DNA of 64,000 bases, taken from Chloranthus sessilifolius (taxonomy: Eukaryota; Streptophyta; Magnoliopsida; Chloranthales; Chloranthaceae). Of the stretch, positions 228 to 59,659 are shown in pieces; within the stretch, counting starts at the first letter, position 1; every line of letters starts with the position of its first letter. The stretch covers positions 44,518,287-44,582,286 of the forward strand of contig CM037590.1 of NCBI GenBank assembly GCA_021018995.1. Direction: 5' to 3'. Position numbers and translations under genes: made by a program. Below the pieces are notes generated by a model. The model searched no databases and was not told where the DNA came from. It saw only the letters and a list, made by a program, of their open reading frames with translations.

Positions 228-3200
228 CTGAAAAGCATTGACTTTCTGACATAAACTTCTGGAATTATTTGTACAAGAAATCATTATGGTTTAGTCAGCA
301 ACATGGTACCTGCAATATTCTTTCTAATAAGAACTTGCACATCACTTCGCAGCGTTTTCGAACGGATGCTAGTAATACCGCATTCATCCCACTGGCTCTG
401 GCTGATTGTGGAAAAAAATCAAGAGCTAAGTTGCGCCTTATGACCGTGACAAGAAGCTGATGGTTAGGCATCTTTCTCAACATCTCAACAACCTGCTCAG
501 TCTTCTTTGCCACTTCCAAAGGTACAGAACTACCATCTCCAACAAACTGAGTTTGCGTACCAGGAGGTTCTTCAAACCAGAACTCATAAAATGTTTTGCA
601 GACAAGATCCTGTTAAATGTCAAATAAAAAATAATAATAATAATAATAATAAACATATAAAAATAAGAAGTGAAAATAAAAGGCAGAAGTGAGTTTCATG
701 CAATCACCGCTTATTTCCTAGCCAGAGACATACAAAGAATCTCACCATAATAGTGACCAAAGTTTAGAATATGGGTCGCAATGGGCAGAGCTTGGGCCGG
801 GTCAACGTAAACCCAAAGCCGGCCTAGCAAACTTGTACTTGGCCCAAGCCTGGCCAAAGCTCGTGACAGGCTTATGATCCCAAGCCCAAGCCTGACCCAG
901 CCAGTTTATTTAAAAATTAGCTATAGATTTACAAAATTAGCCCAATAACACTAGAAAAACTGATATCACAAATACCTAGAAAGAAGTTAGCATATTATAT
1001 CTAATTCCAAAAAGTCTCGAATTTAAAAATAGAAAGTCTGTAGTTCATTAAAGATTTGTTTAAAATATTTCAAGAGAGTTACAAATTTTCAGTTTTCAGA
1101 TACGTATCAGCCAGCTCCAAAACCGATATGCATCGGATGATACATATCGGTTTTGACAATACATTGGTATGTATCGGCCAATACATACCAATATATAGGG
1201 GCCAATACATTCAATTTATCAACCCGGTGACCTCCAGATCTGATACGTATCGGTTTCACCCAGAATTTTGAACCATAATGGCAAGTGAAACCCAATAGTC
1301 AATATGCTTATGATATACGAGAGCCCGGAAGGGGTAGGGGCTTAAGACCAAGCCCGGTCCATTTAAATTTCGGCTTAAAGTGCTAATCCAAGCCTGGTTT
1401 GCGGGCTTTATGGTCAAGGCAGAACCGTCCTAAAATGGGCCAGGTCTAACAGGCCCGGCTGTGCTACCCATCCCATTGCCACCCTTAATTTACAATAGAA
1501 ATGTTAAGCTGTCCCATCAGTTGAAGAGACATGAAGACATTGAAGGTCTACAATGGAGATAACTTGGACAGCCATTTCTAGGATCCAATGTCCCAAAATT
1601 CTACTCATAGCATGTCTAACACTCACTTTGCATCGTGGTTCGAAACGAAAATTCAATGACTCAAAAGTCAGCTGGGTCGAGTAACTAGAAGATTAAAAAA
1701 AAAACTAGAATCAGTCCGACTCGGTGTGTGTGGCTGTGGTACATCTGTTGACTGTTTAAGTAATCACACATTAATTAATTTTATGGTTACAATGAGGAAA
1801 AGAATCATTAACACACCAATAAATGAAACTACTGATGATGCACAACAGCACAAGCTATGCCATCTGCAACCCAGTTAAGTTGTATTTATTTGCATCCCAT
1901 AAATCTTTCAATGCAGTTCATTGATAAATTGCACCTGAATTTCTGAACGTTGCAAATACAATAAAGCTTAAATTTATTTTATTTACAAGCTACAAATCAT
2001 TCAATGCAAGCATGCTTGGGTTGGGTCTGAAGTTCTGGGCTGCAAATAAAGCCACCCGATGACTTTCTACTTTCTAGAGGCCTCCTTATTCAATGCAGCC
2101 CAAATAGCCCACAGCCCGCTTCACTGTAGAAGACTCGAATTCGAAGCCGTGAATCCTTGCCACCAATGGTTGTGTACCAAGCAAGTAGAGATTGCTATGA
2201 AGGTGTGAATCAAGCAAGTAGTTCCAGTAATTTTTGTTTAATTTGTTTGATTGTTTGTTTATATAATGAAATTAGGGATCTGTTTGACTGAATTTGAAGT
2301 CCTAACTGAAGGCCACTCTTTGTTTGTTCTTTGCTTTAGATTCTATTGCTTCTGATCTCAGTTGGGGGCACTAATTCAGATTTCCCGAAAACTCATTGTC
2401 ACAAATCACAAGGGAAGGTCTCTGCTTGGCTTTTCCTCATCGTTAAATGCAAGAAACTCAGCAGAATACATCTGAAGTCTGAACTAAAGTGCTGTTGACC
2501 ACTCTCCTAGTAGAGATTTTCAAGTTTCCTCCCTATCCAAATGATTTTTTTGTTTTTTTCAAAATAAATTGGTGTTCGAGTTAACCTGGTCAAGTTACTC
2601 GAGAGACTCAAAAAATAGTTTTTCATCGAGTTTACTCAAAACTCAGCTGAATCGAGTCGACTCGGTCGAGTTTCTAGTAACTTGACCGAGTTTTTAAACC
2701 AGGGTTTGCGTGATTCACATGAATATACTGGGTAGTTGCTGCATCCAATTCACACATGTAAAACACAGGTACACATGCACAATGTCATCAGTTAAAATCA
2801 TCAGATCATCATTGTTAAAGACTTTACACGAATGCGGTTTTTTTTAAAATAAACCTCATGCAAGGATCTAAACTTTTCAATCATTCATCTAACTGTCCCT
2901 GGTGGCAATCTGCAAAGAGTTATGATCCAAAGCAAGTTGTAGAAAAATGGCAGATGGAGCTCATAGCACTGTGAATATTAGCTCAAAACACAACGAAGGC
3001 ACTCGTAGGATTATATTCAAGGGTCACATGGAAAATGCTTAACCTGATTGGAATTTCTTGAACTGTCTTTTGAGGAGAATGCACTATGCAATTGGTAGAG
3101 ATGAAGGATGTCAGCTTGTATTTAAAAGCATGGTTATCTATTATGGTGAATGGGTCTCCTAAATATTTCTTCCATAATATCTAGCTTTAAAACAAGATAA

Positions 3201-6200
3201 TCCACCGGCTTTCCTTTTTGAGGAAAGACAGTACTCTGATCTCTTCACTCATTCTAAGAGCCCGTATTCCAGTACCATATAGTTAAACATAATGAAACTG
3301 TACTCTTTGGAAAACTTATTGTATTAGCTTCCCAATGAGATTAAAGAGCACGTGATTCCGCCACAAATCGAGGAAGTTATGAGCAAAATACAAACAGAGT
3401 CTAATGTTGGAGGAATCCAAGTGATAGGGAGCATTTTAGTAATTGTTGAAAAAATTAGGTTTAGTTGTTTCTTAATTAGGTGGATGATAAGGATTAGATA
3501 ATGAAGGGTGCCCACTCTGTCTAGGGTTTATTATAATAGATTGTTTAAGTTATTGTAAGGAATATTTTGCAATTACTAAATAAAATGTAGTCCTGGCATG
3601 GACCTTGCCCAACCCTTATCTATTTTCACATAGTTACCTCTTCTCTTTCAGTTCTAGTTTCTCTTGGTTATGAAAAACGTGCAGCATCAAACTCCTCCCT
3701 GTACCTGGTGCAAGCAAATACCATTGAACTTGTTTCGCTCAAAACCACAGCCAACTCCCCTCAAAGATTCCTCTAATTGTCCCAAAAGATACCTAGAGAG
3801 AACCCTTATATATTCTACTACCTAGCTGAGAGAGCCAAAAGGCTCCACCTACAAATATCCAATCAAACATGGCATAATCCACAAAACATCACAAGATCCA
3901 AGAGAACTTCCTGATCATTTGAGAAAATCACAAAGTAACGGGTAAGAAGATATGAGTCGCAGTTTCCTATGCTTAGAGGAAACATGGCACTCAGAATTGA
4001 TCAATAATTTTAAAGCTGATCATCCACCATAACCTTATTAAACAATCATGTCAAACAAAATGTTTAAACGGTGGTCAAACCTGAAAAAACTAGTCATAGG
4101 AAATCACGCAATACTCTTAGAAAAAAGCGCATAACCATAAATGCAATTCTAGCTACCATCAACCATGCTCCTGCTATAAATCAGCATTTCAAATAGATTA
4201 TCATTTTAACACAAATTCAAACCGGTCATAAACCCTTTTTAACGATCATTCAAGTAGATTATCATTTTAAGACTAAGACAGGAACTTCTCACAAAATCAA
4301 GTTCTCCACTTTGTTCTTTGGCATCTCAATTTAAGTTGGAATGTCACAGAAATAACATGACCCATTCCTTTTCTGATAAAAGCACTCACATGGCTTATAC
4401 CCATAATCTTTCATTGTTTAAATAGAAAGGCTATGTTGGTCACTCATTTTTTCCTTGGTCATTTGTCAAAAAAAAATTAGATTTATATTTGTGAGTGCAT
4501 GTGCGTATGACAATACATGAATGGAAAATGTCCTACCTCCCCTACTTAACAATTTTGATCATCGAAGTGAAATTAAATCTTAATGAACCATACTCATCAC
4601 CACCTCAGTGAACTCTACCAATCATAAATATCCAATACTGAAGAAGAAATAAGAAATCTGACATAAAAAAGACTACAGATCTGATAGAGTTTTCTTCCAC
4701 CACGACGATCTATATTGAGAAACCACAAAGGAGAGGTATATCAGTTTAGAAGAATTGGACTTCTTCCTGTTACGTACGAAAATGAATGTGGGTCACATTG
4801 GCTTACAAACATTAGCCCCACCACACTCCATTTCTGGTCCAGAATAGTTCTATATCAGAATCCATAATAACTAAAAGAGACTGACACAGCATAGCTAATA
4901 ACTAAGCAGTGATATAGGAAAAGAAAATCATTTCATGGATTAGGAATAGACCTGTATACTGGATTCTTCATCACTGACACGAGAAATGATCTCAATGCAA
5001 GCACTTGTAGATTCTGAGAAACTGGCATTCGAAATGCACATATCCCGAATAATTTTAATAGCCCGTTTGCGAACGCTCACCCCAGTATCCTTTATTCGCT
5101 CAGCAACCTTTTCAAAATACTACAAAGCAGCAAGAAAATGAGATCTTAACTGAAACCACTATCTCTCCACTGATTAGAATGAGCAAAAGTTTCATATCAG
5201 GTACCTTCAAACCAACATCAGGGTGTGACGCAATATGCCTACCAACAAGTTCCAGAGCAGCTTCTCGTACAGAGATTGCAGAATCACAAAATCTTCCTTC
5301 AACAGCACTTTGAACGCTTTTCTCACACAAAACCTCTGGATCGGCTTCAACTATTACACTAACCTGAACTCCAATTATGTGATCACAAGGAGTTGGTCTC
5401 CAGCTTATGCATCTTTAGATAAATAAATAAAACCAACTGAAGGGATAGGAATGAATGCTTACAGCACGTAAAGCCTTCGCCCTAATTACAGGAGAATTTT
5501 CCCTTAAGCTTACCTGAGACCAGTTATTATAAGTAAGAAGATAAAACTGACATAAAAATTGAAACAGGGAGAAAGCGTCATGATTAATTACCAGAAGCAT
5601 ATACAGAATTTTATCAAATCCTCTTGAAAAAGAATTGTTTTGCCCCAGTGCTAAGGATATCTTTTTGGCCGTGTCCCTTGACAAAAAAGAAGAAATAGAC
5701 CCAAAGTCCCGCACAATTGCTTTTGAGTTCAGTCTAGCAAGGTAGTAAAGGAATTTCTCTTGAGATTTGGGATCATTTTTGTACCAAAGGCAGAGATAAA
5801 ACCTGCATATGATTAACTAGTTTATCAACAGCACCATGCAAATATATAATTATTTTTAAGCTAAGTGTGTAGATGTAAAGTTAACAAACCAGCGAGCAAA
5901 CAGATGTGCGTCATCTGTAGAACTAGCTTCCTGTAAGTAATTCAAAAGCATTTGCTGAACAACTTCCAATCTGGTAATTGAATCAGAAGATTCAGCAATG
6001 CCGTCAGACACACGTTGAGTCTTCTTCCCGTCATCTTTGCAGTGAGATGTGCGGTATGATCGGAGAACAGTGAGTTGTTTTTTACAGAGGCAAAATGGAC
6101 AAGACCACCCACGGGGTAGAACTTCTTGTCCTGTAACTCCAATGCAATCCGTGTGAAAGCATCTTTGACAACCATGACAAACAATCATATATTTCCCACC

Positions 6201-12200: not shown

Positions 12201-15200
12201 CATTCAGAATTTCAAGTATCTTTACTCCTTAGATCAATTTATGATCTCAAGGTATATCACATTTTAACAATTCAACCAGTCTTCGGATTCAACCTCAATC
12301 TATATCAAAAATCAATACTTCAATCAATTTTTGGGTTCGATTCTAATATACTATGGTTCAACAATTCAATCGAGTTTCGGGTTCAATCAAGGATTAACAA
12401 TCCAATCAGTTGGAATTGTAGAGTCAGTACTTGACTTCTATCAAATTAATCATTATTAACTTTTTGAACCTATATATGTGATAGGATCACTAGCCATAGT
12501 GATTTCCTGAATCAGTTTACACTATACTCAGTGTTGCCATTTCCTAGAGTCCTTTGGGGACTTAATACTTCATAAATAATTCAGTAGGGTTAATATAGGT
12601 TAACCAAAGAATTTCATTGGTTTTCTTATTAACTATCATTTGCAAATATAGGTTAACCAAATAATTTCAATTGGTTTCTTATTAATTATCATTTGAGAGT
12701 AGCAATTTTAGGTTCATTTTACAAGAAACCTTACACCTTAGGTCATTAGAGAAACTAGGGTATCATTAGTAAAATTAATGTAAATGTCATCTCTGGATAT
12801 TTGGATCAACTCACGATCCCTCAAAGGTGTATCTTACAATAAATACTTCAAAGGCCACACTTCCTTGGGGTACTTCCGGTTTTCATACACAATTAAATTG
12901 GTGTTGTGCCAATTTCAACCTTGGGTAGGCAAGTAGTAACTAAGGGTCCCTTTTAATCAAAGTCAACTAGTCAAATTTGATTTAAGTAACCAATCTTACA
13001 ACCAAAGTTTTTCCATCACTTTTAAGTATGCTTACCAATCAAGCATTGGGTTCTTAATTCCAACACCCTTTATAGCCTAGTCATTCTCACAACTTAGCTA
13101 AATTTGACTTTGACTAGGACATAAGTGGAGATGTCTGAAAGTCTTCGAGTGACCTTATTTTATCACACAGATTTAGGTATGTTCAATTAACCTCATGTGT
13201 GGAGGTCTCAGGTTCAAATTTGGACTTTAAGAGAATTGTGCATAAGACACTGGTTTCCATATTTGACCTTTGGGTATAAAAATTTCACAAAGATGGCATA
13301 CATTATCGAAATGACGCGTTCTCAGACCTCGATGGAAGGTGACTCATCAGAGATCGTGCTTGAAGTGGAATCATATTATGACCAAGGTAGTTAAGGCGTT
13401 GTGACGAGGTCATGGCAAAGAGGCTCGCCATGCCATGGTGTGGCCATTTACAATTTTTTTTAAAATATTAATAATTTTATTTTTATTTATTAATCATTAA
13501 TATTTATTTATTTTTTAGTTTTTTACTATCTTTTAATTCAAATGTTTTTTCTAGAGGAAGAAAAAAATTCAACTAATTAATCAAGCAAAACAACAGACCA
13601 AACAATAGCTGAAAAACGTTGACTGCTTCCAATCAGTCAATAGAGATTTTTTTTCTCCCCAATATTTCACCCAATTATCTCGACTGATCCTGAGATCATG
13701 GGCATATTATCCCACGGTCAGTTTTTGACTCCATGTCGCACACATGCTCACAGATTAATTTTTGGGATGAAAAACTGACCATCTGATGAATAATAATATT
13801 CTAATGATCTCAAGATCAATTGTGGGATAGATTGGAACAAAAAATGATCTCGGTTGTCCCCTCAAAGCAATCAACGGGTTCAGCTGTACTTAGTTTTAAG
13901 AATCAAGCCCGACAAAAAAAAAGATTTAAAAAAGCAGACAAAAAAATAATATATATATATATATAGAATAAATTATGAAAAAAAAATAGAAAAACACAAA
14001 GGAAAAAAAACACACAAAAACACACAGAAAAAGGCATACCTAAGCTTGCCGATTGAAGCAATCGATTGCAAAGGAGATTGAGAGTAGATAGCTTGCGATT
14101 TGTGAAGGTGATTCGTCCTAGATGGAGCTTGCGAAGATGCAAATATATAATAAAAAATTAGCCGAGAGAAAAGAACAAAAATAAAAATAAGAAGCTGAGA
14201 GAGAAAGAGACAAGAGAGATAGAGAGAAAGGGCAGAGGCGGGAGAGAAAGGGAGGCGAGAGAGAGAAAGACGAGGAGAAAAATAAATTGCTAACCTTTTT
14301 TCACTGAGAGACTCGTGCTGCGGAGAGGAGCGGAGGAGAGTGTCAAGAGATGAGTGATATCCAAGCCTTAGAATCCCTTTTCATATATAAGATTATAACT
14401 AATAATTATATAGCTTATAATTATTGTTAAGTTATATATATAACTTATAATATATAGCTTATAAGTATTATAACTTATAATTATATAATTTATTAATCCG
14501 TCGCCATTCGCCATGGCACACCTTGACTACCATGACTATGACTTTTTCATGATTAGTCAAACTTGCAAAGGCAATTTGACTCAAATTTATGTTGTTTTCT
14601 CACTACCGAAATCAGACCAGTTTCGAAGATCAGGTTGGAAAGCTAAGGCACACACCGTCATTTTTTGTAGTTGCGGCGATCATTGATTCTTCGCAAATTG
14701 ATCGCACAAAGCAAATTACAGCATCGAGTCGGGCATGGGATCTTATAAATTTCTGCAGATTTCACATCAGCGACGAAGATTGGGTCGGATCTTCCTATCT
14801 ACAGATCGGTTTTGCGTGCATGATATACCCTTGGAAGGGTAACGCACTGTCATTTTTCGTAATGGTAGCAATCGTTGATTCTTCGCTGATTGATCGCACG
14901 AAGCAGATTACAGCGTCGATTCGGCTATGCGATCCTACAGATCATCCATAATATAAGAAGTAATACCATTTGATCACTACAACGGTGCTTTTCGAAGGGC
15001 TCGTTATGCAGATCTTGGTTCAAAGTTTTCAGGGCATCTCGAGCTATGTGACATTGCAAACCCATCGAACCGTGTAAGGACTTTCGAATCTTTTTCTGCT
15101 ATCTATTTCTAAGATTGTATGTAGTTTTGTCAAAGAGGAAGAAATTATATCAATTTTTACCTCGTCTTCGACTACACACCTGATCCCATCTTCTTGTGTT

Positions 15201-18200
15201 CCCCAATTTTTGTGTCATCATTTGGTTCGTGGATATTGTACAGATTTCATCGAATAACTCCAAGGATCTTTTGAAACAATGTTCGAGTGGTTTGTTGTTG
15301 TTTGATGGACTTGTGATGTTTTTTATACCTTGCTATGTTGGTTTTATGGCACATTATCTCTGTTTTCCATTTTATTTAGCTTCTTAGATTAAAATCTGGT
15401 TTGTATACTTAAGTGGTTGCCTTTCCCACTTATTTTTGGATATTAATTTATTTTAAACTCTTTCCCGCCACTGGGCTTCTCTTGTTCCATAGGCAAACTA
15501 AAACTTATGCACCGATTGATCCTTTTGATTCCAATCCCTACCACGAATTACTAGCATCACACTTAATGGAAGAATTTTCTCCCATGGTCTTGAGCCATAA
15601 ATTATAGTTTGGCAGCCATAGAAAATTGGGCCACATTCTTGGGACTGTGATCAAACCTTCTCATCTGATCTCACTTTGTCCCATTGAGCAATTGACAACT
15701 ATACGGTGTTAGGATGGCTGTTTAACTCAATTTCCATGAGATAGTTGCACAATTAAGGGATACATTGAATGCGCATGCAAAGAATAATACTCGGATTAAT
15801 CAATTATTTAGAGAAGTCTCTTGTGACGAGCAAGGAGACCATTCTGTTTCAGAGTATTTTGGCTTTTGAGTACACTGGTGAGGGTTTCAGAATTGTTGCA
15901 TGTGGTTTTGAGCACTAGTAGATCTAGTGTTTTTTTGTGGGAATTCAACCTGAGTTTGAGTAGCTACGTGCAGAGATACTTCTAATTAATCCCTTTCCCT
16001 CTATATCAATCATTTATGCTTATTGTTGATGTAGATTGAGACGTCGTGCTATATTGGCTTTCTCTACCAAGATATCAAACTCGGTATCGGTCCATCTTGG
16101 ATGGATACGCATCAACCGAAACAGATACGGCATAGCCAAAACTGTAACGGCTTTTTTTTTTTTGAAAAATGCAAAAAAAAAAAAATGTATCAGTCAATAT
16201 CGGCCGATACTGACTCATATCGGTTCTCGACGAGACCGATACTTATCACTATCAGTCGAGTTTTGAAACCATGTTCTCTACTCCTGTCGAACACAGAGCT
16301 ATTACTACTTAGGTTTGGGGTAAGGGGAGTCGGCGTGGTCATGGGAAGCGAGGACATGGACGTGGAGGTCATAGCAATGTTGTCAAATCGCTTAAGCCAT
16401 GCTAAGCGATTTGACAACATTTTTCTTAAGCGTAATCACTCAATCGCACAAGTCATGGCTTAATGATTTTGATTTATTTTTTTAATTAAAAAACAGAATA
16501 ATAACATGTATCTAAGTCTAACAACTAAAGTAACACTAACAAAAATTGGGAAATGACTAAATGAGTCAATGTAGGGGGAAAATATACATTCTTATATTTA
16601 TTTAAAAAAAGTGTGTCAAACATACAAAATTATAACTTCAAATTAAAATTATAAATTACAAATTTACAATGATTCCTCTTGCTCACTCCTCACTGAGTCA
16701 TTGGTGTTGATATTAAGTATCGACTATGTACTCTCCACATTGATCTCTAACTCATTGTGGTACATCTCCTCTATCATTACCACCATCATCACTAGCATTG
16801 TCGTCATCATTGAAATCATCACCTTCTACACTCTTCTTTTTCCTCTGTTTCTTTTTCATCTGATCTCACTAATATGGAGTCTCTATCGTCTAGTTGTCTT
16901 ACTTCTTCTATCATTTCATCTTCTTCATCAATATGCATGTCTTGGCTGCTACTACCTCCAACTAATCGCCTCCTTTTAGTGGGTGTTGCACCAAAAGCCG
17001 CTTTTTCAACTTGGGCCCATGTTAAATCTTTCCCAAAGAAGACAGGCTCATCTGGTGTATCAACCATCCATGGATGATCAGGAAGCACATCATCCACACA
17101 GATGGGATCGTAGAATCCTGGTTACTTCCGCCTTTCAAGGAATTGTTTGCATAGGTTCTGCTTGTCCTGCACGACACCAAGCCATTGAGCTTCTTTTGCT
17201 CAAGTCTGTCCCCTTTTTCGTGTGGATTTGTTAGACATGAGGACCGTAGAAATATGTTATTGTTCAATAATTAAAAATTACTAATTTAATTTTTTTTTAA
17301 ATCTCCATAAGAGTTTAAGACTTCAATTACCATCTCGAAAGAGCTCTAATTCCGTCCACATCCGAATGCAGAACAAGACCAAGTATCCTAGTTGTCAGTT
17401 TCTTCGAAGGGGATCCTTTGTTATCGGATGTATCTCATAAGCTGCCCACCAGTCGGCTGAAGATTCAAGCGAATTATTAGAACTAGTAGAGATACATTAA
17501 TTAATTTGAAATTTGAAGACATTTAAAGTTTAAACTTAGAATTTTTGTTTTCCTATGTCAGATAACTGTCTCTTCCAAAAAATCCTCCTGTCTTCTTGTA
17601 TCGAACCAAATGGATAGCTATCCTATCATGTTCGCCTCCATTAGGGACCATCCTCTCTAAGACATCAAGAAAATCAATCATGTGAGTGGGCATCCGCTTC
17701 ATCTCCACCCGGGTGTGGAAAGTACATAAATGGATTAAGAATGAAGGTTGTCGAATATAATGGAGATGCAATTTGGCTTCCCCACCGCTGGTTGATTATA
17801 TCCAATAAGGTTTGATATATTCTCGACTTGAATTGATTATTAGATTTTAATTTTTCGTGGGCGTTCTCCATAAAACTACATATACATATATAACCCATTG
17901 GTGGTTTCTCACCACCATCAACCAATCGTAGCACATCTATGATTGGTTGGACTCACGTAAGGTTTGTACAAGAGGAGTCCAAAATTGGTTTTAGAGCAAT
18001 GTTTGTGCAACCCATTTACTGACAGCCTTCTTTGACCAAGGCCCATTGTTCCAATGGGCCGATGTTACAAAACTTGTAAGTTCCTTCTTTTTCATATAAG
18101 CTTTGGAATGTTAAGAACACGGTTGCAAATCGCGTTACAGCGGGACGTAATAAATTATCTCTATATGGCATTGCGCATTCTTTGAAGTAGAAGCACATAT

Positions 18201-21169
18201 TTGTACATAAACACAACTACCTTCCCAACTTTAAAAATTATTTTAATATGTAGTATACCTATATCCACTATGATTAAGTCTAAACAATGGGACGCACATG
18301 GCATCCAATATAATTGTGGTCGCTTTTCCGTAAGGAGTCAACCAGCGGCTACGTAGAATACCGCATTTTTCATTACAACTTAGACAACGTATTCAGTTCC
18401 TATTTCTTCTATGGTCTTATCTAAGTGTAAATAAATATTCGGTTGTGTGAAAATGGGCCGATGCATCTACCGATTTTATGAACATAATTCTGATAGGACA
18501 ATTTTTCAAGAAGATGTTCAATGTCACCGGATCTATCCGTCCATCCATTGGCCACCAATCTGCAATCGTATATTTTCCATGCTTCCTTATATGTGGCTAA
18601 TATATTTTTGGTCACTCTTACCTCTTCTTTGAGGCATGTTTCCCTAACTTGTCGTAGGATGGAGGTTCAAGTCTAGGTCCAAATTGCCAAAGAGCTGCAA
18701 TCGTCACTTTGAAGCTCTTTAGCATAACGGCATTGAAAGCAATGCCGACTTGGTAGAACCACTTAGCCACATATTGGATTGTGGCGGGTCTATCCTTACT
18801 TTTAAATAAGTTCTCAAGTGTTGTTTAGGCAGGTTCTTTACCCTCCCTTTGATAAACCACGTGATGTGGTCTACACCACCCTTCTACCACGACCATGAGC
18901 TTTTTTCGATGGTGGTTGTGGAGGTCGTCTAGTTTGGGTCGTCGATGGTGTAGATCTATCATCATCATAATCATCATGACTACGTTTCATATAGCCTTTT
19001 TTAAAACAACAACATGATCATGTTTTTTCCTAGAGTGCTTGTCCATGTACTACATGATTCCCTTTCGGATTTTCGAACAAGCTTTATGGCAAGCCCTAGC
19101 ATTTGATCTGGCTCCATGAGTAAGATGTTTATGTCGGCCTACACCACCCGTGCTCTCATAATCGCACAAGGTGCATACTATGATTTGTTTCTCGGTGGGA
19201 CTCGTACACCGTCCAAATTTCCAACCTTGATCACTTGATTTAGGCCTTAGAGGATCTGGATTAGAACAGGTAGACATAATTAATTGATGATAGAAAGTCG
19301 GAAAAGAAAATTAGAGGTTAAAAATCTTGAAACAAAATTAATAAAACTCAAAGCTCCCAAAGGCTTGCTTGATTCAGGTCACTTGAGAGTTGAGAGTTGA
19401 GACTTGAGATTGATAGAAGAGTAGAAGCTTGCTTCACTCTTCAATCTTGATCCTAGAATCCTTTATCTTTCCCTTTGAAGCTTACTTACACACTAACACT
19501 ACTATAGTCAATTATTTACTAATTACAACAACTTTAATACACTAAAAAGGAGGATTACAAAGCATAAAAAATATTAAAGAGCAAAGTAGGAAGATGAGAG
19601 GAGATTGGGAGTCTAGAATGGAGGGTAAAGAGGAAGAATGAGCCAAAATAGTTGCGAGTCCCCCCTCCCCCTTTATAGAGGTTAAGGGGCCTAAAAAAAA
19701 AAGTGCTCCATCGATCATATTTTTGACCGTTGGAGCACTATGCGAAGCCATAAAACAGGGCTTATGTGATCGCATACATGACTGCCTCGCAATCATATCG
19801 TCTACTTCTCCTCCCTAGGTGTGTTAACTTACGCGCTTCAGACCATATGATTGGTGACTCTCGGTTATTCTCTTCCATTATACCACACTCCTCTAATAGG
19901 CCAATATGCTTGGTTGATGGTTCCCTCACTCCCATTTCTAGTAAGGAAAGTGTTCCTCTCTCAATCCCCTTCCAATATTTTGCATGTTCTTCATTTAAAC
20001 ACTAATTTATTATCAACCAACAGGGGGTTGGGACAATGACCAGGACCACACCACAAGAAGGGGAGTTTTATGAGTTTAAATCCCACCCTTGTTGACCACT
20101 TGCAGGGATCTATCCCTAATGAGTGGTGTGTGTGATGTGCGGGTGTTGCACGTACCTGGGGACTTAGTCGGGTTCTCTAAGAGGCCAAATACCCCGTTAT
20201 AAAAAAAAAAAACACTAATTTATTATATATCATATGCATAACCAATCATTGAACTATTTAGTAACCATCTTCCCCACAAATTATATTTTGAAGGACTTGA
20301 TTACAAGGAGGATTTTTGGTATGGGACATGAGAGCGAGGGATTGTATTACATTAGAGTTGATAGACCGATGGCATCATCATCTCACACACATTTTACTTG
20401 CTTCTAGTCGTATTTTAAGTGTATACACATCAAATCTTTGGCATGTTAGCCTATGACATGTCACACTGCAAAATTTATGCTTGTTATTTCCCTCTTTCAA
20501 GGATAATTAATGGTTCTTAACTTCAATGACACAGAGAGTATCAGGAACTTGTTCAGAGAGCTTCGATGCTCATACCTCATCCTCTCACCTAGGTGAGTCG
20601 GGTATCATCAGGTCAGCTCATGCATCATCTTTAAAACAATCCTTGGGGATCACTGAGTCAAGTGCCACTAACCACATGCCTCGTATGCCTACTTTATGTG
20701 ATTCCATTATGCCCATGTCTATTCCATGCAATATTCGAGTTCCTGATGAATCCCTGGTCCTAGTAACGCGACAAGGAGATGCTCATATTTAGGGGTGTAT
20801 TCGGTTCTAATCAGATTCTAAATGTTCAAACCAAACCAAACCATCCAACAGTTGAACCAAACCAACCCGATTCGATTCGGTTTGGTTTGGTCGGTTTTAG
20901 TTTTTCTATAAGTTCTACTTGCACATCAAAAATTTCGCAATTTCTCAACCTGTTTTACACTTTTACTATTTTCATTTTTTCCGGAGTCGTTTTACTTTTC
21001 CTCAAATACACTTTTACTAACTAAACCTTTAGAAATTAGAACCCTAAGTCTCTACTCCCAAATTCAACGTCTTATGAGATTTGAGCCTTAAGGTTGTGAA
21101 ACACTGAATTTGGGCCTAAATTTTGGACCAAAAATTCGATGCCCAATCGTCTACTTGACTCAAGTTGAT

Positions 21170-21248
<79 letters not shown>

Positions 21249-36289: not shown

Positions 36290-39200
36290 GTTTCAAGAAG
36301 AGAGACAAGCATCTTATAATTTTTAAGAGTGGAACAAATAAAACTTTATAAATTATTTCTTAATAAGGCAAAGAGAGTGCAAATGTGCAAGGATTGCAAG
36401 ATTATCCCAGGAGAGACCCTCACGACACAACATAGATTGATACTTTTTGACATTTTGATCAAGAGTCAAGTGACTAAAAAGATGATAGGATTTGCAAAAA
36501 TAAAATGGTGGGAATCAAAAGGAAACAAAATAAAAGGGAAATGAGTGACCGAGGTGTATGGTGGTGGGAAGGGGATTCAAATGAGATGTGGAAAAAAAGG
36601 TGCAATGCCATAAGCGAGCTGCTAAGGAGGTGCTCGAGGAATCTAAAGGAAGAAAAGGTATACAAAAAGAAACATGGTTGGTGGAATGCATACATCCAAA
36701 AGTCAATTGCCGAAAAGAAGTATTTTAAAGAATGACAAAGAAACAAGAACTACATATGATAATAAAATATATAAGCTCGACTAAAGAGAAGCTACGAAAA
36801 TTGTGAGCAAGGTTACGTATGAAGCATACTACAATTAATATAGTAAACTGAGAACGAAAGGAGAGAGAAATCTATAAACTTACCACGATTAGAGGAAATA
36901 AAACTCAAGATCTCGATCAGGTAAGGTGAATTAGAGACAAAGATCAAAGGGTCTTAGTAAACAAGGATAAAGTAAAAAATAGATGGTAAAAATACTTTAA
37001 AGATCTATTAAACATGAAATATGTGAAGGAAGTAGATCAAGAAGAGGAATCAAATCAAGACATGATCAACGAAATAATGGAAGATGAATAAAAGCAACCT
37101 TACCAAAGATGAAGAAAAGAAAAGCATTAGGACCAGGTGAATTACCTATAGAAGTTTGGATTGTGTTGGGAGAGAATAGACTGAATTGGTTGATTAAATT
37201 ATTCAATAATATATTTAAACGAAAAATAATGCTCGAGGAATGAAGAGAATTGTAGTACCTTTCTATAAGAACAAAGGAGAAATTCAAGATTGTGCATACT
37301 ATCGAGGCATCAAACTAATGAGCCAGACTACAAAACTGTGGGGAGAATAGTACAACGACTAAGACAAGAATCAAATTTATCGGAGAACCAGTTTGGATTT
37401 ATGTCTGAAAGATCAACAACGGAAACTATTTTCCTACATAGGGCAACTTATGGAGAAATTTAGAGAGACAAGGAAAAACCTATATATGGTCTTTGTTGAT
37501 TTGGAGAAGGTTTATGATAGAGTGATGAAATAGACAATCTGGTAGACAATGAGGAAGAATGCAACTTGAACATATAGATTGAGAAGACATGTATGCATGG
37601 ATCAAAATATCGTCCGATACCGATAAGTATCGGACGATACGTATCGGTTTTGGACCTCACCGATACGATACAATAAGTTTTATCGCCCCCCCTGAAAAAA
37701 CTGTCAAATCATCGTTCAATGTATCGTTCGTATCGGACGATAATTTCAAATTATCATCCGATAATTTCAAATTACTGGTTTTGATGTTTTTTTTGTTTTT
37801 TTTTTTTTTTTTTGGGAAAAAATCAGAGAGTATCGTCCGAAACCGATACGTATCGTCCGATACATATCGGTTTTGGGGTTGGACGATACGTATCGAAAAA
37901 ACGAGATTTTGATCCTTGCATGTATGAGAGGGTGATAACTTGTGTAAGAACGACGTGTAGAGAGACGAGTGAGTTCCCTATCGGAGTTGGGCTGCATCAA
38001 GGTTCTGCCTTGATCCCCTATTTGCGGAGGACGTAGTATTAATTACTCAAATAAGGAAAGAAATAATGTAAGCAAGGATTAAAATTCATGACCATACTTT
38101 TTGTATGGTCATGAAGATTTCGACCGAAATTTCGGTCCAAAATTTCGGTTTCGGTCCCCACCAAAACCAAAACGAAATCTGAAATTTTGATCCTTGATGT
38201 TAAGCTGGAATTATGGAGAAAAGCTTTTGAGCCGAGGGGATTGAAAATTTAGCAAAACAAAGATGGAATTCATGGAGAGCGAATCTAGGGATTATGATAG
38301 CCTAGAAAAGAATTTAGTTAAAATAGAAAATCATTTAGGGTCACATTGCCATATAATTCACTATTTAGAAATGTAGTTAAATGGCATATGCGATCATATG
38401 TGATCCCATGGCACATTCGCATATGCATGTAGTTAAAAAAAATCAAAAATAAAAAATTTGAAAAAAAACCCAAAAGGATCCCTTAAAATCCCCAAAATTC
38501 CCCATATTGAAAACTAATATATTTGTGTTAAACTGTGCTCTATTGATTTTGTAGAATGAGAAATAAAAGTATATAACCCATAATTGGAAAGGAAAATATA
38601 AATTCATTGATTTTAAACAAAATCATACCTTGGATGGATGTGGAAAGAGAAAGAGAGAGAAAGAGAGAACTAAAAACTCAAAAAAGAGACCAAAGAGGCA
38701 CAAATCATATCTTGGATGGATATGGTATGGATTAGGAAGAGGAACCCGTTATAGGCTTTGGGGTATAGGCTTTGGGGAGCCCTAAAAACCAAAAACCAAA
38801 AAAAAAAAAAAAAGCTCCAACGGTCATAAATATGACCGTCAATCATGTATGAGAGCACATACAGTGTATGCGATCGCATATGCAACATTATGCGATTGCA
38901 TACACATGTATGCCATCGCATACATGACTGGGTCGCATACGCCATCATGGCATATGAGACAAGAGCTCTTAGAATCGCATATGACAACACTGCTATTTAG
39001 ACTCTACTTTCCAATCAGATGGTGGATTTGAAGAGGACATCGCAAACAGGGTGGAAAAAATGGAGGCAAGCAAGTGGAGTATTGTGTGACCCAAGAGTTT
39101 CACCAAGATTGGAGTGGCGTTTTAATAAGATGGCGGGTAGACTTACCATATTATATGGTGTGGAGTGTTGAACTATCAAAAAGAAACAAGAAGATAGAGT

Positions 39201-42120
39201 GCATGTGGTTCAGATGTGTATGTTGAGATGGATGTATAGGGCATGGCCGAAATTTCAAAATTTCGGCCGAAATGTTTCGGTTTCGAGCATGGCCGAAACA
39301 AAACCAAAATCCAAAATTTTGGTCCAATTTGTATGGGGTCCAAAATTTTGGATTTCGGCCAAAATTTCGGATTTCGATTTCGGACATGCCCGAAACCAAA
39401 ATTCAACCTGAAATTTTGAACCTTGGTGGCACCTATGAAGGACAAATTGTGGAATGTCGTTTGACATAGTTTCAACGTCTTCATCGGAGGCCCGAACTAG
39501 ACCATGTTTGAAAGGTTGAGATGCTACAAGCACAAGAAAGTAGGGGAAGAGGAAGATCAGTGAAGACCTGGAGGGACGCCGTGAGAAGGGATATGAGGAT
39601 TGCGAAGTTACATAGAGCTTAGCCATGCAGAGGTGAGAGGGGAAATAGGACTCCCAAATAGATGGGATGAGGTCGTGGTGATGATGGATATAACTTTTTG
39701 AGGATACTCCATATTTTTCTGATAGGATCATTTCCAGTTTGCCTAACTTAGATCCTAGTTATGTGCTTCCTCTTCCTGTTGATCATTCTCCTATAGGTTC
39801 TACTCCAAAGCACCAGCTACGTTGGCCGTCTTCCTCTTAAGCACACTTATCAGTGCAAGAGCAAGTTGGTACCTCCACCTCAAACCATATGCCAATAGTC
39901 CACTCTGATTTAGATCCTTCAGGTATACCTGCACCATCTTCTCCTTTGATTTCTCCTATAATGGTTCCCTCTTCCTCCATTAGTGATGACCCCTCCATGC
40001 ATATTGCACTTCGTAAAGGTAAAAAGAGTTGAGTCATTGCTCATCTCATTTCTCAATTTGTTTCCTACCAGACTCTCATATTCTTATCGAGCTGCTTTAG
40101 CTATCGCTTCAAATATTCCTATTTGTCACTCTTTCGAGGAAGTTCTTAAACATCCCTCTTGGCCTACTGCAATGGCTGAAGAAATGGTAGCTCCTGAGAA
40201 GAACAAGACATGGAAACTTGTTGATCTCCCATCTGAAATAAGCACACAGTTGGATTGGAGGATGGCACGGTTGAAAGGTATAAGGCATGTTTTGTTACAA
40301 AAGGCTCCACCTAGTTGTCAGGATTGGACTTCACTGCTACTTTTTCTCTTGTGGCCAAACCTACTTATGTTCGAGTGACTATCTCCTTAGTTACGCACCA
40401 TCATTGATCTTTATACTAGTTAGATGTTTACAATGTCTTCTACTATGAGCAATTGGATGAAGAGGTGTACATGGACCACATCATGGCTATCGTCTTCAAG
40501 GGAGTATTCTGAGAAGATATGCCGTCTTCTAAAGTCAATTTATGGATTGATGCAATCTCCTAGAGCTGGTTTCCATAGATTCAGTATTGTTGTCCTTCCT
40601 ATGGGCTTTATTAGGTGCCACTTGGATCACACATGTTTTATACATACTAGAGTGAGAGGCATCAGGGCCGTACTATTGCTATATGTGAATTATATGCACT
40701 TGATATGTTGAACGACATTGGGTGTAGACATGTTAAGTCTCCAATAAATCCCAAACATCATCTTCATGCGGATATAAAAGAGCCTCTTTCAAATCCTTTG
40801 GAGTATCAGTGTCTTATTGGGTGCCATAAATAAAGTACAAATACATGGCCAAACCTCACATTTGTTGTATCTTTTGTTGCCCAATTTATCACTCTCCGCT
40901 GACAATGTGACACCTGACCTTGATTTTGTTTATTGCATACTCTTATATTAAAGCATGTTCTATTTTGATGTTGGGCATTCTTCTCTCAGTTGCTATAGTG
41001 ATGCGGATTAGGCTGAAGCACCCACTAATCATCGCTCTACTTAGCTATTATACATTCCTATTCATGTTAGCTATCTTGTGGTGTGGGAAAGTAACAAATG
41101 AGATGTTGTTTCTCAATCTAGTGGAGTGTCTAAGTAAAGAGCCATGGCATATGGCACATATGAGCTCCTTTGGCTTCGCTCCCTTCTTTCCACGTTGCGA
41201 TCTCTTCTATCCATTATTATGCCTCCAAATTGTGATAATTAGGCTTCCATAGACATGGTTGTTGAGTTCGTTCTTCGTGAAAGAATGAAGCACATAGAAA
41301 TTGGCATTCAATTACCTTCGTGAAAAGGTTCAAGCTGGGATCATCAACACTTCAAAAGTGTCATCTTCAGAACAATTGGCTGATGTATTTACTAAAGCAC
41401 TTCAACCTTTTTCATCTTCAGAGTATTCTTTGTCAAGCTGGGCATGATCAATACTTACGTACCAGCTGAGGGGGAGTACAGGTGTATGTGTGTTATAATT
41501 TTCAGGGTGCGTGCAGATACCCATCATTATAAGGGTATATTTACCATTGTTATTAATACAAACCTAGTAAGGCCCTAAACCCTAAGTCATTTTTTGGCTA
41601 ATTTCCCTCTCTTCTCCTTCCTCTTTAAACCTAACCCTACCTAGCAATCTAACACTAGTGCCAAGTAGAAATATACAAGTACACATAATTCTATCCTAAA
41701 CATACGTTGTTCTTAATTTCTTTACAATTTGAGATTTGTACCATACTAATATACAAGTATGCATGGTACCTCATCTGTATAGGGAAATACTGGTAAATAT
41801 TTGGCAGTACGCATCTCTAAAGGATGGAATTTTGTCCCACAAAGAAATCCCAAATATAAATTCTACAATAATTGAACAAATTATGTTTTACATGCATTTT
41901 ACACACCCCCTAAGTCTTTCCTAGATGTTTCTATAATGGTTTTAAAACACGGAAATTCGACTCGACTCGGAAATCATCTGAGTAGAGTCAACGCGGAAAA
42001 TCGATCCGACTCGAGTTATTTAATATATATAATTATATATGAATATAAAGTGGAAAAAAAAAACCAGATTTTAAGGCCCCTGTGGCTTAAAATCTGGTTT
42101 TTTTCCACTTTATATTCATA

Positions 42121-42192
<72 letters not shown>

Positions 42193-45100
42193 GAATATGT
42201 ATGTCTATTATAAGGCATCTGTGGTTTATTAGGGCACCTGTGGCTTCTAAACTGGAAAAAAAAAACAAAACAAATGATAGGGCATCTATGGCTAATAAAG
42301 TAGGGGGGAAAAAATGAAAACAGATATTAGGGCAAATTTTAGGGCAAAAAAAATAGAAAACAGATTTTAGGGCAATAAAAAAGAAAACAGATTTTAGGGC
42401 AAATTTGAGGGCAGTTGTGGCTTGCTGGTCTTTCTTCATCTTCTTCATCTTCTTTCTTCTTCTTTCGTTCTTCTTCTTCTTTCTTCTTTCTTCTTTCTTC
42501 TTGCGTCTTTCAGATTTCTCGTCGACTTTCTGTAGAGGGTTAGTATATAAAGGGCTAAAATGGGGCAAATGACAAATATGCCGCTCAAATAAATTTAAAC
42601 CCCCCCCCCCAGCCATTAAGTATATTTGCTACTTAAGTGACTCGCCAAGTCGACAAACTCGCCCAAGTTTTCGAGTCGAAGCCCAGATCGAGTGCATATA
42701 CGAGTCGACCTGAAACTGGGTCAAGTCGAGTCGACTCGCTCAAGTTTCGAGTCAACTCGTCTAGTTTTAATACATGGTTTCTATTCCAGTTCTCAATAAG
42801 CTTCTCAAACGTCTTTCACATACTTATCAATACTCTTCAGAAGCGTTCCACAAATGTTTCATGTACCTTTCACAAACATTACAGGAGAGCATTGCAAATG
42901 ATTTTCACAGATAAATATCTCCAAAATGTTAACGCCTAACGATAATTTTTAAAATGAAAATATGTTCCGCTTTTGGAATGGATTTCCACCAATAAGGTTT
43001 CCTGAAATTATGCTTCTAACCATTTATATTCTCTCATTTAATCCTAAACCCTAACTATTGTTAATTCCTTGTCCTAATAAAAAGGTTTTATATCTTAATT
43101 CTCTCTTAACCATTGCCATTTTGTTGAAGATGCAATACCTGTAAGAATGTTGACGATGAAGTAAAAGGGGATTAAGAAGATGCAATTAACTTCAACTGAC
43201 TTAGGAAGCTGTTCCCACTCACGAAAGACAGTTTCAGCAAAACTATCAAAGCCAACATTTTTTCCCAAGATACAAAAAGCATAGTGAAAATAGATTATAA
43301 TAAAATGTCAGGAATCAACTACATGAAAACAGTTTCAGTAATAATAAGGCCGAACACTAACACCAAAATAGAAGAAATCAGTAGCATAAATAGAACATTT
43401 CAAATGTGAAAGGAAATATTACATACTTTAGAACTAATATGAATACTTCAATATAAAAAAGTACTTACATTTTCATTTTCATCAACAGATAGACCTTGCC
43501 TACAGAGAATCTGACGATCTAGAACATTTAGAACTCTTACAAGAATATCTACAGGAACCAAGTGTAGGATTTTCTTTCCACGGATGGACATTACTTCATT
43601 TACAAGCATTTTAATATCTGCAAGAGGCAAAGAAAGCTCCTCTCCTTCACCCTGATCATCAATGGGAATTTCTGCCTTCCCACAGAAGTCCTCCAACGCC
43701 TCACAAAAGCCTCTAATGATGCGATCTAAAAACCAAATGCCTAGACCTTAAGTCACATCATACTTATAAAAAATTAAAATAAAAAAAGAAAACAATAGAT
43801 AATACGAGAATTTAGTGGTTTAACCTTGAACCTCAACAGGATCTGTACCCATCGAGATAGGCACATCATCATTTCCTTTCTTTTTAACTTTGGGTTTTTT
43901 AGAAGGAACAGAACTCACTGTGCCCTACATACCAATTGGTTTCTAGATTAAGGCAACGGAACAAAAATAGACCAAATAGATCCATAATTCTCAAGAATAA
44001 AATGAATACCCCACATTAACTAGCTTCTCATTGAAATGGTCAGGGAAAGGTCCTTCAAACCCTCTTTGTCCTTCACTAATAATGGGTACAGTCTGTTCAA
44101 CGGGCTTCCTCTCAGAAAAAGAACAATTACTCTGCTCCTTGAAAAGACCTGAGAAACTTGAACAATACAATACACGATAAGCACAAAAGCATTACATCAG
44201 TTAAGTTGCCACTATATCTACGGAAGGTAAAAACAAAAGAGCATAGGAGAATCTAAGATACTTAGAAAGGGTAATTTAGGAGTTTGCAATAGAACAAACT
44301 TTGAAGACACCATATTCTAGAGACTCGAGAAACGGTTGATCCTTCTGAGGTGTTACATAATTGAAAATTAAAAAAGTTCACTAGAAGTTAGTTAAAACTA
44401 TTCCTATTGTCCACAATTATAGCAAAATCAGAAAATGAACTACAAGAGAAGAAATTGAAGGATAATCCAAACTACCATATGGATGCATTTTAGGTACTAT
44501 ATAAAGAGCACATTCATCAGTTGTAAGATAAAAAGTACCACAACTGCACAAAAAATATAAGGGAAAAAGGGAGTCCTTAACTATCACATAAATAATAAAT
44601 TAAGTGTTACACCAAAGTTTCATTATCTCACTCTTTAGCACTCACCCGGAAGCTGGAATGAAGGGATCATTCCAACCATGATTGATGAACCCTAGTTGAT
44701 CAACTGGGTTCAAACATAGAGGCCCATAGCGGATCACTTATCACAAACCCTTTGAAAATAAGCACTGGCTGTTTACATGGGCTCTCCACTTCGGCTGGCC
44801 AAAAGATTGTTCCGGAGATCTGCAGATCTTCACCAATAAGCTCATATATATTGCAGGGATGAGTTCTAGGGCCCATGCCAAAGTGACAATTTTATCTTGT
44901 GACCCAGATAGAACAGGACCTTTCATGCCTACTCATATGTCATTGTTGACTACCTTATAAGCACCTAAACAACAATTTGGTTTACAACTTCAATCAGTCA
45001 ACTGGCTTGTGAATGAACATTATGGACCCCATAGCTTCACATCCATCATACCTGACAATATACACCCATACATTCCAAAATTTAAAATGAAACACTGGCA

Positions 45101-58114: not shown

Positions 58115-58655
58115 CATAGTGACAAATTTCGCCGAAATTCGGCAAAATTTCGTGAAAAATGCCGCAGTTGGGGTCAAACGAAAATTTCGAAGAAATTTCG
58201 ATACTTTTCGAAAATTTCAGAAATTTCGGTTTTTTCAGCGAAATTCGGTAAATTTCGAAAAAAAAATTAATTATTATTTATCATTAGTAATTTACTAATA
58301 AATGGTTGTCCCCACACGGTCACTAGTCACCACACAGCTTTAGACTCCTTAAGGGTAAGTTGCCTACTATATATAGGTGGCTTTGAGTATCCAAATTTCT
58401 ACATCCACCGATGTGGAACTAAAGGTAAGTTAAAAAAATTACACTTTTTCTATATGTCGTATTGCCATCTACTTTATAGTTTAGCTTCAATGCTTGGCAC
58501 AGTTGCTTTTATGGTTTAGCTTCAGTGTTTAGCATAGTTGCTTAAACATATTATTTTATATATTTTTGATCCCCGAAACTTTCCCGAAATTATTTCGAAA
58601 TGTACCGAAAGGACCTCCCACCGAAAAATTATCGAAAATGAAATTTGGCACCATG
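58115..58655. mobile_element. TTTCGGCCGAAA-word hAT MITE, 541 bp, perfect 8-bp TSD
   Basis: gtcggcat at 58107-58114 and 58656-58663. Ends CATAGTGACAAATTTCG and (inverted) CATGGTGCCAAATTTCA. Both arms are built of AAATTTCGGCGAAATT-like words; the centre is unrelated. Confidence 0.9.
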
Positions 58656-59388: not shown

Positions 59389-59396
59389 CTTCAGAT

Positions 59397-59659
59397 CATA
59401 GTGACAAATTTCGTTTTCGACAACATTTCAGTTCATTTCGAAAAAATTTTGATAAAAATTCGAAAAGTTTCGGGAAAATTTCAAGGAGAATAAAAAATAT
59501 TTTTTTTTCTAATTATTTAAAAAATGATAAAACTTAGAAAAGATTTATTAATTTCACCGAAATTAATGAAATTTCAGCGATTTCGAAGAAATCATCGAAA
59601 TTTCGCTCTACCCCTGTTTTAGTAAATTTCGAAGAATTTCAGAGAAATTTGTCACTATG
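59397..59659. mobile_element. TTTCGGCCGAAA-word hAT MITE, 263 bp, perfect TIR and TSD
   Basis: cttcagat at 59389-59396 and 59660-59667. The terminal repeat CATAGTGACAAATTTC is identical at both ends. It shares its left terminus with the 58115 member, so the two are the same family. It looks the least decayed of the set. Confidence 0.93.

What the first reader, a model, noticed from the sequence alone, without database searches (positions are those of the whole stretch)
770..59659. One hAT architecture, many private palindromes: at least seven element families distinguished by the word that fills their ends
Elements with 8-bp target duplications share a layout (CA...TG or TAGGG...CCCTA ends, word-filled arms, unrelated core), but each family uses a different word: GATACGTATC (16068, 37596, 27637), TTTCGGCCGAAA (58115, 59397), GAGTCGACTC (41935), GCCATGGC (31501, 13383, 25601), GCGATCGC (38369), GGCCCG (770, 24008), GGTTTGG/TTCGG (20790). 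Six of the target duplications are perfect 8/8 direct readings. In the five palindromic families the word centre is a different 4-bp palindrome (ACGT, GGCC, TCGA, CATG, GATC). The inference is that element families diversify by switching the subterminal site read by their BED-finger transposase, giving parallel non-cross-mobilising families.
Basis: partly seen in the sequence, partly recalled or inferred. Interest (0 to 1): 0.85.

Follow-up and report, generated by a model that had tools for sequence, protein, structure and literature searches.

The report
Plant hAT transposons with lineage-specific end-words
What is apparently a plant genome carries several related families of cut-and-paste jumping genes that share the same kind of tips but fill the DNA just inside them with a family-typical short word, most likely the docking site for each family's own enzyme; the principle is known, and here many such families sit side by side.

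Summary
The window lies in an unnamed 2.17-Gb genome, apparently a plant's. Its elements are hAT transposons: 8-bp target duplications (13 of 20 listed elements perfect), shared tips (YANGG, AA at positions 11-12), arms packed with one short word rare in other families and in background. Corrections: the unit is a short motif (CCGATA, CGAAAT, ACTCGA, ATGGCG, TGCGAT) in both orientations, the palindromes being head-to-head pairs; TTTCGGCCGAAA occurs once, not in the elements cited; 31501 is a complete 4.26-kb element with a decayed BED/DUF659 transposase. A second decayed transposase (19.2-17.7 kb, minus strand) goes with the TGCGAT word. Twelve genome hATC loci tie word to lineage: CCGAGC (3 of 4), GCCCGA (3 of 4, the fourth AACCCG), AACCGA (2 of 2), two single-locus lineages. 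In six complete elements 61 of 64 word copies lie in the outer 300 bp. Against strict privacy: AACCGA serves two distant lineages; one tip occurs with two words; palindromic arrays also occur where no hAT ends were recognised. Transposases of the CCGATA, CGAAAT and ACTCGA families were not found. Family-specific subterminal repeats are published (Ac, Tag1, Tol2, Hermes, Herves): a rich example of a known kind.

The parts
37596..37918 (.). Family A element (word CCGATAC; palindrome CCGATACGTATCGG), ends CATGGATCAAAAT / CAAGGATCAAAAT
   Evidence: TSD CATGTATG 8/8; CGATAC 14 vs 0.05 expected
16068..16273 (.). Family A element, ends CAAGATATCAAAC / CATGGTTTCAAAAC
   Evidence: TSD TTCTCTAC 8/8
27637..28448 (.). 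Family A word arms; ends uncertain
   Evidence: CGATAC 9, CCGATA 9; best TSD 7/8 goes with poor TIRs
1080..1285 (.). Family A words nested in the element at 770
   Evidence: no convincing TSD
58115..58655 (.). Family B element (word CGAAAT in both orientations), ends CATAGTGACAAATTTC / CATGGTGCCAAATTTC
   Evidence: TSD GTCGGCAT 8/8; ATTTCG 11 vs 0.14
59397..59659 (.). Family B element, ends agree 16 of 16
   Evidence: TSD CTTCAGAT 8/8
39247..39430 (.). CCGAAA word array with the window's only TTTCGGCCGAAA; A-like inner end (TTTTGAACCTTGG)
   Evidence: no TSD (best 5/8 among the three placements listed)
41935..42776 (.). Family C element (word ACTCGA / CGAGTC), ends AATGGTTTTAAAAC / CATGTATTAAAAC
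   Evidence: TSD GTTTCTAT 8/8; CGAGTC 9 vs 0.10
2570..2710 (.). Family C word array (ACTCGA 5)
   Evidence: no TSD (best 4/8)
31501..35761 (+). Family D complete element, 4261 bp, word ATGGCG, with decayed hAT transposase
   Evidence: TSD CTATGCAC 8/8; 10 of 11 word copies in the outer 300 bp, none in 500 bp on either side
32452..32904 (+). zf-BED part of the family D transposase (GGITRQKQHLAG)
   Evidence: PF02892, 27.8 bits, over cut-off
32810..33367 (+). DUF659 part of the family D transposase
   Evidence: PF04937, 66 bits
34414..34833 (+). C-terminal region of the family D transposase, in pieces
   Evidence: read by eye as hATC-like (SSSGCEHNWS); not Pfam-tested
13383..14534 (.). Family D short element
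   Evidence: TSD A[TC]TATGAC 7/8; 73% over 243 bp to the end of 31501
25602..26685 (.). Family D short element, exact ends uncertain
   Evidence: TSD CCATTAG[CT] 7/8; 76% over 252 bp to the end of 31501
38369..38992 (.). Family E element (word TGCGAT / ATCGCA)
   Evidence: TSD CTATTTAG 8/8; CGCATA 8 vs 0.07
16375..19791 (-). Decayed DUF659-type hAT element related to family E; TIR-like CAATGTTGTCAAATCGC at 16375, BED-like 19232-19062, DUF659-like 18845-18526, E-like arm 19693-19791
   Evidence: tblastn with the D transposase, E 7.9e-5 and 1.0e-14; 72% over 85 bp to the E arm 38802-38880, E 1.2e-7 with permissive scoring; no TSD found; Pfam named no family in the BED-like ORF
770..1487 (.). TAGGG-type element; leading words CCAAGC, AGCCTG, CCGGGC
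   Evidence: TSD 6/8; ends agree 14 of 16
24009..24352 (.). TAGGG-type element, CCCGGC/CCGGCC words, left end eroded
   Evidence: TSD TA[GA]CTGAT 7/8
20790..21399 (.). TAGGG-type element, AACCGA/CAAACC words
   Evidence: TSD [CT]TCATATT 7/8; AACCGA 6 vs 0.11

Best explanation
These are parallel hAT transposon families, mostly short non-autonomous ones, in one (apparently plant) genome. SHOWN: 8-bp target duplications; tips sharing YANGG and AA at positions 11-12; arms filled with a family-typical unit in both orientations; in complete elements the unit is almost confined to the outer 300 bp; loci of the same BED/hATC transposase lineage mostly carry the same unit. INFERRED: the unit is the subterminal repeat bound by the N-terminal BED finger of the family's transposase. 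Head-to-head pairs (the palindromes) would be bound cooperatively by two BED domains, as in Hermes; the conserved tip would be handled by the conserved catalytic core. Short copies keep tip and words and are moved in trans, so families with different words would be mobilised largely separately.
For: TSDs 13 of 20 perfect and tip conservation over 10 families; near-diagonal element-by-word table for A-E; word copies in the outer 300 bp of all copies in the element: D 10 of 11, L025 15 of 15, L028 13 of 13, L035 11 of 11, L030 7 of 7, L032 5 of 7, none in the flanks held (up to 500 bp each side; L025 left 385, L028 right 36, L035 left 25); 12 hATC loci: 5 complete elements (L025, L028, L030, L032, L035) with TSD 7-8 of 8, 6 more with a word array on one or both sides but no resolved ends, 1 miss (L036); same lineage, same word: L025/L033/L034 CCGAGC, L026/L028/L035 GCCCGA, L027/L029 AACCGA; window transposases D and E with their own words. 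Hermes: two BEDs bind a quasi-palindrome of two STRs cooperatively, base contacts from Q64, S66, N67, R70 and main chain (PMC10368747, passages). My by-eye alignment on the zinc ligands puts different residues there in each lineage: G/T/T/R (L025, L033: CCGAGC), G/S/H/R (L026, L028, L035: GCCCGA), G/G/T/N (L029: AACCGA), D/S/S/G (L031, helix broken by a stop: ACCGAA), R/T/T/G (L032: ATCCGG), G/T/R/Q (window D: ATGGCG).
Against: Transposases of families A, B and C were not found; the PF04937 search did not complete. No binding data. AACCGA is used by two lineages 32-38% identical in hATC (L027/L029 and L031). L030 has the recognition helix of the GCCCGA lineage but its commonest word is AACCCG; L036 has no CCGAGC array; L034, of the CCGAGC lineage, reads SGRTITLKRH. 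The tip CAAGGATCAAAAT occurs with CCGATA words and, in L004, with CCGAAA words. Palindromic or CG-word arrays occur where no hAT ends were recognised (L016, L018, L007, L022, L011, L014). Words were chosen post hoc from the arms; CG words also head 45 of the 66 clusters of a blind scan, hAT or not, so the CG core is not special to hATs by this measure.
Confidence: 0.85

Rival explanations
1. The words are not protein sites but local expansions: short palindromic CG words multiply by slippage or gene conversion in any repeat, and hAT arms are only one place where they are kept.
For: Palindromic or CG-rich arrays (TCGATTAATCGA, GGCGTATATAATATATACGCC, AAGCGT/CGCTTC, CAATCGATTG) occur in random stretches where no hAT ends were recognised; three of these stretches also hold retrotransposon ORFs (L007, L022, L011).
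Against: In six complete hAT elements 61 of 64 word copies lie within 300 bp of the tips and none in the flanks held; in 5 of the 6 copies lie at both ends in the bins and in L032 4 left, 1 right; words differ by family and mostly recur with the same transposase lineage.
Confidence: 0.1
2. The words are inherited by descent: each family descends from one founder, and a shared word only marks common ancestry, without selection for transposase binding. Not exclusive of the best explanation.
For: Short D elements share 243-252 bp of arm with the complete D element; lineage and word would agree under pure descent too.
Against: Units sit in both orientations and at varied spacings within an arm, which one founder sequence does not explain without repeated gain of the unit; conservation of units against spacers was not measured.
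Confidence: 0.25
3. The words serve host silencing: CG-containing palindromes attract or sense DNA methylation, and the transposase relation is secondary.
For: Each of families A-G has a CG-containing unit among its leading words, while 11.2% of background 6-mers contain CG; non-hAT arrays have CG words too.
Against: The score favours rare CG-containing words; some leading words lack CG (CATGGC, CAAACC, CCAAGC at 770); it does not explain lineage-typical words or confinement to the arms.
Confidence: 0.08

Closest known systems
Maize Ac/Ds (PMC3260210, passages seen)
   Same: 8-bp duplications, short TIR, AAACGG hexamers in the subterminal arms bound cooperatively by the transposase, Ds1/Ds2 with filler cores
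   Different: One word (AAACGG); here many words in one genome, several arranged as head-to-head pairs
Hermes of the house fly (PMC10368747, passages seen; host recalled)
   Same: BED finger reads short subterminal repeats; two BEDs bind a quasi-palindrome cooperatively
   Different: Hermes has two palindromic pairs in its left end and an AAGT core; here arms hold several pairs, and the leading units mostly have a CG
Herves of Anopheles (PMC3143072, abstract and discussion seen)
   Same: CGATTCAT-type motif at both ends; its authors conclude that hAT transposases bind regions that differ in sequence, ensuring specificity
   Different: Single element, insect; binding shown by experiment
CGG-binding proteins domesticated from hATs (PMC8097297, first of three text parts seen)
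   Same: hAT BED/Hermes DNA-binding domains have diverse specificities, usually with CGG or CGC; motifs of four hAT proteins match their own subterminal regions
   Different: Proteins tested on arrays, from animals and a fungus in the part I saw; no plant families there

Membership tests
hAT superfamily | 8-bp target site duplication | tested here: met
   13 of 20 listed elements 8/8, 6 at 7/8, 1 at 6/8. Left out of that list: 24009 and 25602 (7/8 but ends out of register), 27637 (unclear), the arrays at 1080, 2570, 39247 and L003 (no convincing TSD), the decayed element at 16375-19791, and the loci without resolved ends
hAT superfamily | Short TIR starting with Y-A and G at position 5 (YARNG-like; consensus recalled) | tested here: met
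   A2 1.00, G4 0.81, G5 0.93, A11 0.90, A12 0.80 over 10 families, 40 ends (A at position 2 was required in the blind scans, not for the window elements placed by TSD)
hAT superfamily | Transposase with hATC dimerisation region and RNase-H-like fold | tested here: met
   L025 ORF: PF05699 91.5 bits, PF14372 81.6 bits; the other 11 loci by PF05699 only; window D: PF02892 and PF04937. Families A, B, C: no transposase seen
hAT superfamily | N-terminal BED zinc finger | tested here: met
   PF02892 in L033, L029 and window D; the L035 ORF and the window 19053-19262 ORF gave no Pfam family though they align to BEDs; no BED was seen in L027 or L036
Ac-like subterminal-repeat recognition | Transposase binds its own subterminal repeat | not testable with these tools
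   needs DAP-seq or EMSA
Parallel non-cross-mobilising families | No trans-mobilisation between families | not testable with these tools
   needs an excision assay
Parallel non-cross-mobilising families | One word per transposase lineage and one lineage per word | tested here: inconclusive
   word per lineage mostly holds; AACCGA is shared by two lineages

The most novel reading that the evidence does not exclude
Tip and word are separate modules that recombine: hAT families in this genome keep a catalytic-core tip (YANGG, AA at 11-12) and exchange the subterminal word, under a shared rule that the word is a CG core with a few variable neighbours read by the variable positions of the BED helix, often as head-to-head pairs for two BEDs. 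One genome would then hold a readable BED recognition code and a record of specificity switches.
Probability: 0.3. Interest if true: 0.7.

Novelty: new member of a known kind. Interest (0 to 1): 0.45.

Why it matters
Subterminal words are thought to decide which transposase can move which short element. A genome with thousands of hATC candidates (4130 in the first look, 150 scored) and word-marked short elements would allow a BED-to-word code to be read by comparison and tested by DAP-seq, help assign non-autonomous elements to their mobilising transposase, and show how transposon families become isolated from one another.

Tried and rejected
Tried without result: the PF04937 (DUF659) search of the own genome, repeated many times and never answered, so the transposases of families A, B and C stay unidentified; phmmer of an N-terminal transposase piece against PDB (0 matches at E up to 1); protein search with the D BED ORF (14 candidates, none at E <= 0.001); literature search for TCGATTAATCGA (one unrelated paper listed); Rfam on the window (0 matches at gathering threshold). 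Rejected: 27637 as a clean element (no TSD with good TIRs); the L034 candidate 722-5076 (TIR unlike its lineage) and the AT-repeat candidates in L031 and L033. Counted as a miss: L036, an hATC fragment of the CCGAGC lineage with no such array. L001 and L002 were fetched because they hold the A word, so they are no blind sample; L001 gave two A elements with perfect TSDs, L002 none in the scan. Searches behind the statement that I found no paper on palindromic word families of plant hATs: (listings; only the papers named in the report were opened).

Full report
WHAT WAS CHECKED. The window is 64 kb of a 2.17-Gb genome in 32 contigs. No tool named the organism; that it is a plant is my inference from genome size and repeat content. 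I read the coordinates named in the finding, located ends and target duplications, counted words against the rest of the window and against 200 kb of other stretches, and then went to the genome for transposases.

THE ELEMENTS ARE REAL. Seven window elements have perfect 8-bp duplications (16068, 31501, 37596, 38369, 41935, 58115, 59397). Others have 7 of 8 (13383, 20790, 24009, 25602) or 6 of 8 (770); 27637 is unclear. Of 20 elements listed in the window and fetched loci, 13 are 8/8, 6 are 7/8 and 1 is 6/8; left out of that list were 24009, 25602, 27637, the arrays at 1080, 2570, 39247 and L003, the decayed element at 16375-19791 and the loci without resolved ends. Copies elsewhere repeat the pattern: family A in L001 (twice, GGGCCCAC and GCCCCAAG, both 8/8; this locus was fetched by its word) and L009 (7/8), family B in L036 (7/8). 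The blind scan gave 13 hits in register, 9 of them family elements, against 8, 2 and 2 with shifted flanks, so the scan alone is not clean; word content and shared tips carry the case.

THE WORDS. Leading units are CCGATA/CGATAC (A), CGAAAT/ATTTCG (B), ACTCGA/CGAGTC (C), ATGGCG/CATGGC (D), TGCGAT/CGCATA (E), CCCGGC/CCGGCC (F, at 24009; the leading words at 770 are CCAAGC and AGCCTG) and AACCGA/CAAACC (G). In the table of 23 elements by 8 units, the six A elements have 3-10 copies of CCGATA and at most 1 of any other A-E unit, three B elements have 7-11 of CGAAAT, C has 7 of ACTCGA, D elements 3-10 of ATGGCG, E 6 of TGCGAT; random genome has 0.10-0.30 per 500 bp. Exceptions in that table: A elements carry up to 3 AACCGA; L004 has one CGAAAT (its word is CCGAAA); L025 also has 3 GCCCGA and 2 AACCGA; 770, L030 and L032 score low on the listed units. 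The unit is not itself a palindrome: it occurs in both orientations, and favoured head-to-head spacings make the palindromes (CCGATACGTATCGG 4 times, GCCATGGC 6 times, TTTCGAAA 4 times, small numbers).

TRANSPOSASES IN THE WINDOW. Element 31501-35761 is complete: TSD CTATGCAC 8/8, ATGGCG units at both ends, and between them a decayed transposase with zf-BED (27.8 bits) and DUF659 (66 bits). A second decayed relative lies on the minus strand, with tblastn matches from 19232 to 17710. Upstream of it, 19693-19791 matches the arm of the E element at 38369 (72% over 85 bp, E 1.2e-7 with permissive scoring, including the GATCGCATA word), and an E-like tip CAATGTTGTCAAATCGC lies at 16375; no duplication was found for it, and Pfam named nothing in its BED-like ORF.

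THE GENOME TEST. The hATC search had 4130 first-look candidates and scored 150. I could read 12 of these 150, chosen by hand. Five give complete elements by blind scan: L025 (4600 bp, 8/8, CCGAGC), L028 (4766 bp, 8/8, GCCCGA), L030 (3920 bp, 7/8, AACCCG), L032 (4122 bp, 8/8, ATCCGG) and L035 (4870 bp, 7/8, GCCCGA). Six more have word arrays but no resolved ends: L026 (GCCCGA, one side), L027 and L029 (AACCGA, one side), L031 (ACCGAA/AACCGA, both sides), L033 (CCGAGC one side, AGCTCG the other) and L034 (CCGAGC, one side). L036 is a miss. By hATC identity, L025/L033/L034/L036 form one lineage (84-90%), L026/L028/L035 another (88-89%) with L030 beside it (77-79%), L027/L029 a third (90%), L031 and L032 singletons. 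Word follows lineage in 3 of 4, 3 of 4 (the fourth has AACCCG) and 2 of 2. With dominant words from a fixed list of 8 units, 7 of 13 same-lineage pairs agree, permutation p = 0.015. That list came from the same data and lacks AACCCG and ATCCGG: it gives L030 a tie and L032 the word AACCGA, whose four copies lie at 285-410, outside the element that starts at 529. In the six complete elements (these five and 31501) word copies in the outer 300 bp are 10 of 11, 15 of 15, 13 of 13, 11 of 11, 7 of 7 and, for L032, 5 of 7: 61 of 64 together, with none in the flanks held (up to 500 bp; only 385 bp left of L025, 36 right of L028, 25 left of L035). The words had been picked from these arms.

TIPS. Over ten families weighted equally (40 ends), A2, G4, G5, A11 and A12 are conserved (1.00, 0.81, 0.93, 0.90, 0.80) while the rest varies more. 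The CA-ended families D and E go with DUF659-type transposases; the TAGGG-ended complete elements with hATC transposases, PF14372 being tested in L025 only. That A, B and C belong to the DUF659 side is inference from their tips.

AGAINST A STRICT READING. AACCGA serves both the L027/L029 lineage and L031, 32-38% identical in hATC. L004 2524-2720 (TSD 8/8) has the tip of family A and the CCGAAA word of the B kind. Arrays of other words occur where no hAT ends were recognised: TCGATTAATCGA in L016 (13 copies), L018 (21) and L026 (10), GGCGTATATA[AT]TATATACGCC in L007 (3) and L022 (2), AAGCGT/CGCTTC in L011, CAATCGATTG in L014. Of the ORFs sent to Pfam, one each of L007, L022 and L011 carry retrotransposon domains and two of L018 nothing; L016 had no ORF of 150 residues, that of L014 and further ORFs of the others were not sent. 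So the finding's own refutation clause is met in part: palindromic arrays are not exclusive to hATs. A CG core is not special either: 45 of 66 blind clusters are headed by a CG word, 31 of 48 outside the window.

MECHANISM. Hermes gives the model: two BED domains bind a quasi-palindrome of two subterminal repeats cooperatively, with base contacts from Q64, S66, N67 and R70 (PMC10368747, passages). Aligned by eye on the zinc ligands, the lineages here differ at these positions, as they do elsewhere in the domain. This is consistent with covariation but, with six lineages, no test of it.

KNOWN OR NEW. That hAT transposases bind regions differing in sequence and so stay specific is stated for Herves (PMC3143072, abstract and discussion), whose discussion also names the Ac, Tol2 and Tag1 repeats; Ac uses AAACGG, with Ds filler cores (PMC3260210, passages); hAT-derived DNA-binding domains mostly prefer CGG or CGC, and motifs of four hAT proteins match their own subterminal regions (PMC8097297, part 1 of 3). 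What this genome adds is many such families side by side, repeated head-to-head pairs, and one or two hints that tips and words recombine. I found no paper on that; the library lacks most subscription journals.

Noticed in passing
window 21273-21571: A 147-bp tandem duplication (98% matches) covers the right end of the element at 20790, so that end is present twice.
   Followed up: no
L016:2050-2640, L018:100-560 and 3150-3900, L026:5000-5600: Dense TCGATTAATCGA arrays (13, 21 and 10 copies), with similar flanking sequence in L016 and L018 by eye, in repeats without recognised hAT ends.
   Followed up: partly
L007:5919-6048, L022:8255-8323: Palindromes GGCGTATATA[AT]TATATACGCC, 3 copies in L007 and 2 plus variants in L022, in stretches that also hold retrotransposon ORFs.
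   Followed up: partly
L004:2524-2720: An element with a perfect TSD whose tip is that of family A and whose word is CCGAAA as in family B: a candidate tip/word recombinant.
   Followed up: partly
window 42023-42135: A 97% inverted repeat with a 37-nt loop inside the core of the family C element.
   Followed up: no
window 21688-24743: Inverted 42-bp arms 3 kb apart (90%; GGTTGTGTTCGGCATTGCTCTTTGGGAGAG), possibly another transposon around 21.7-24.7 kb.
   Followed up: no
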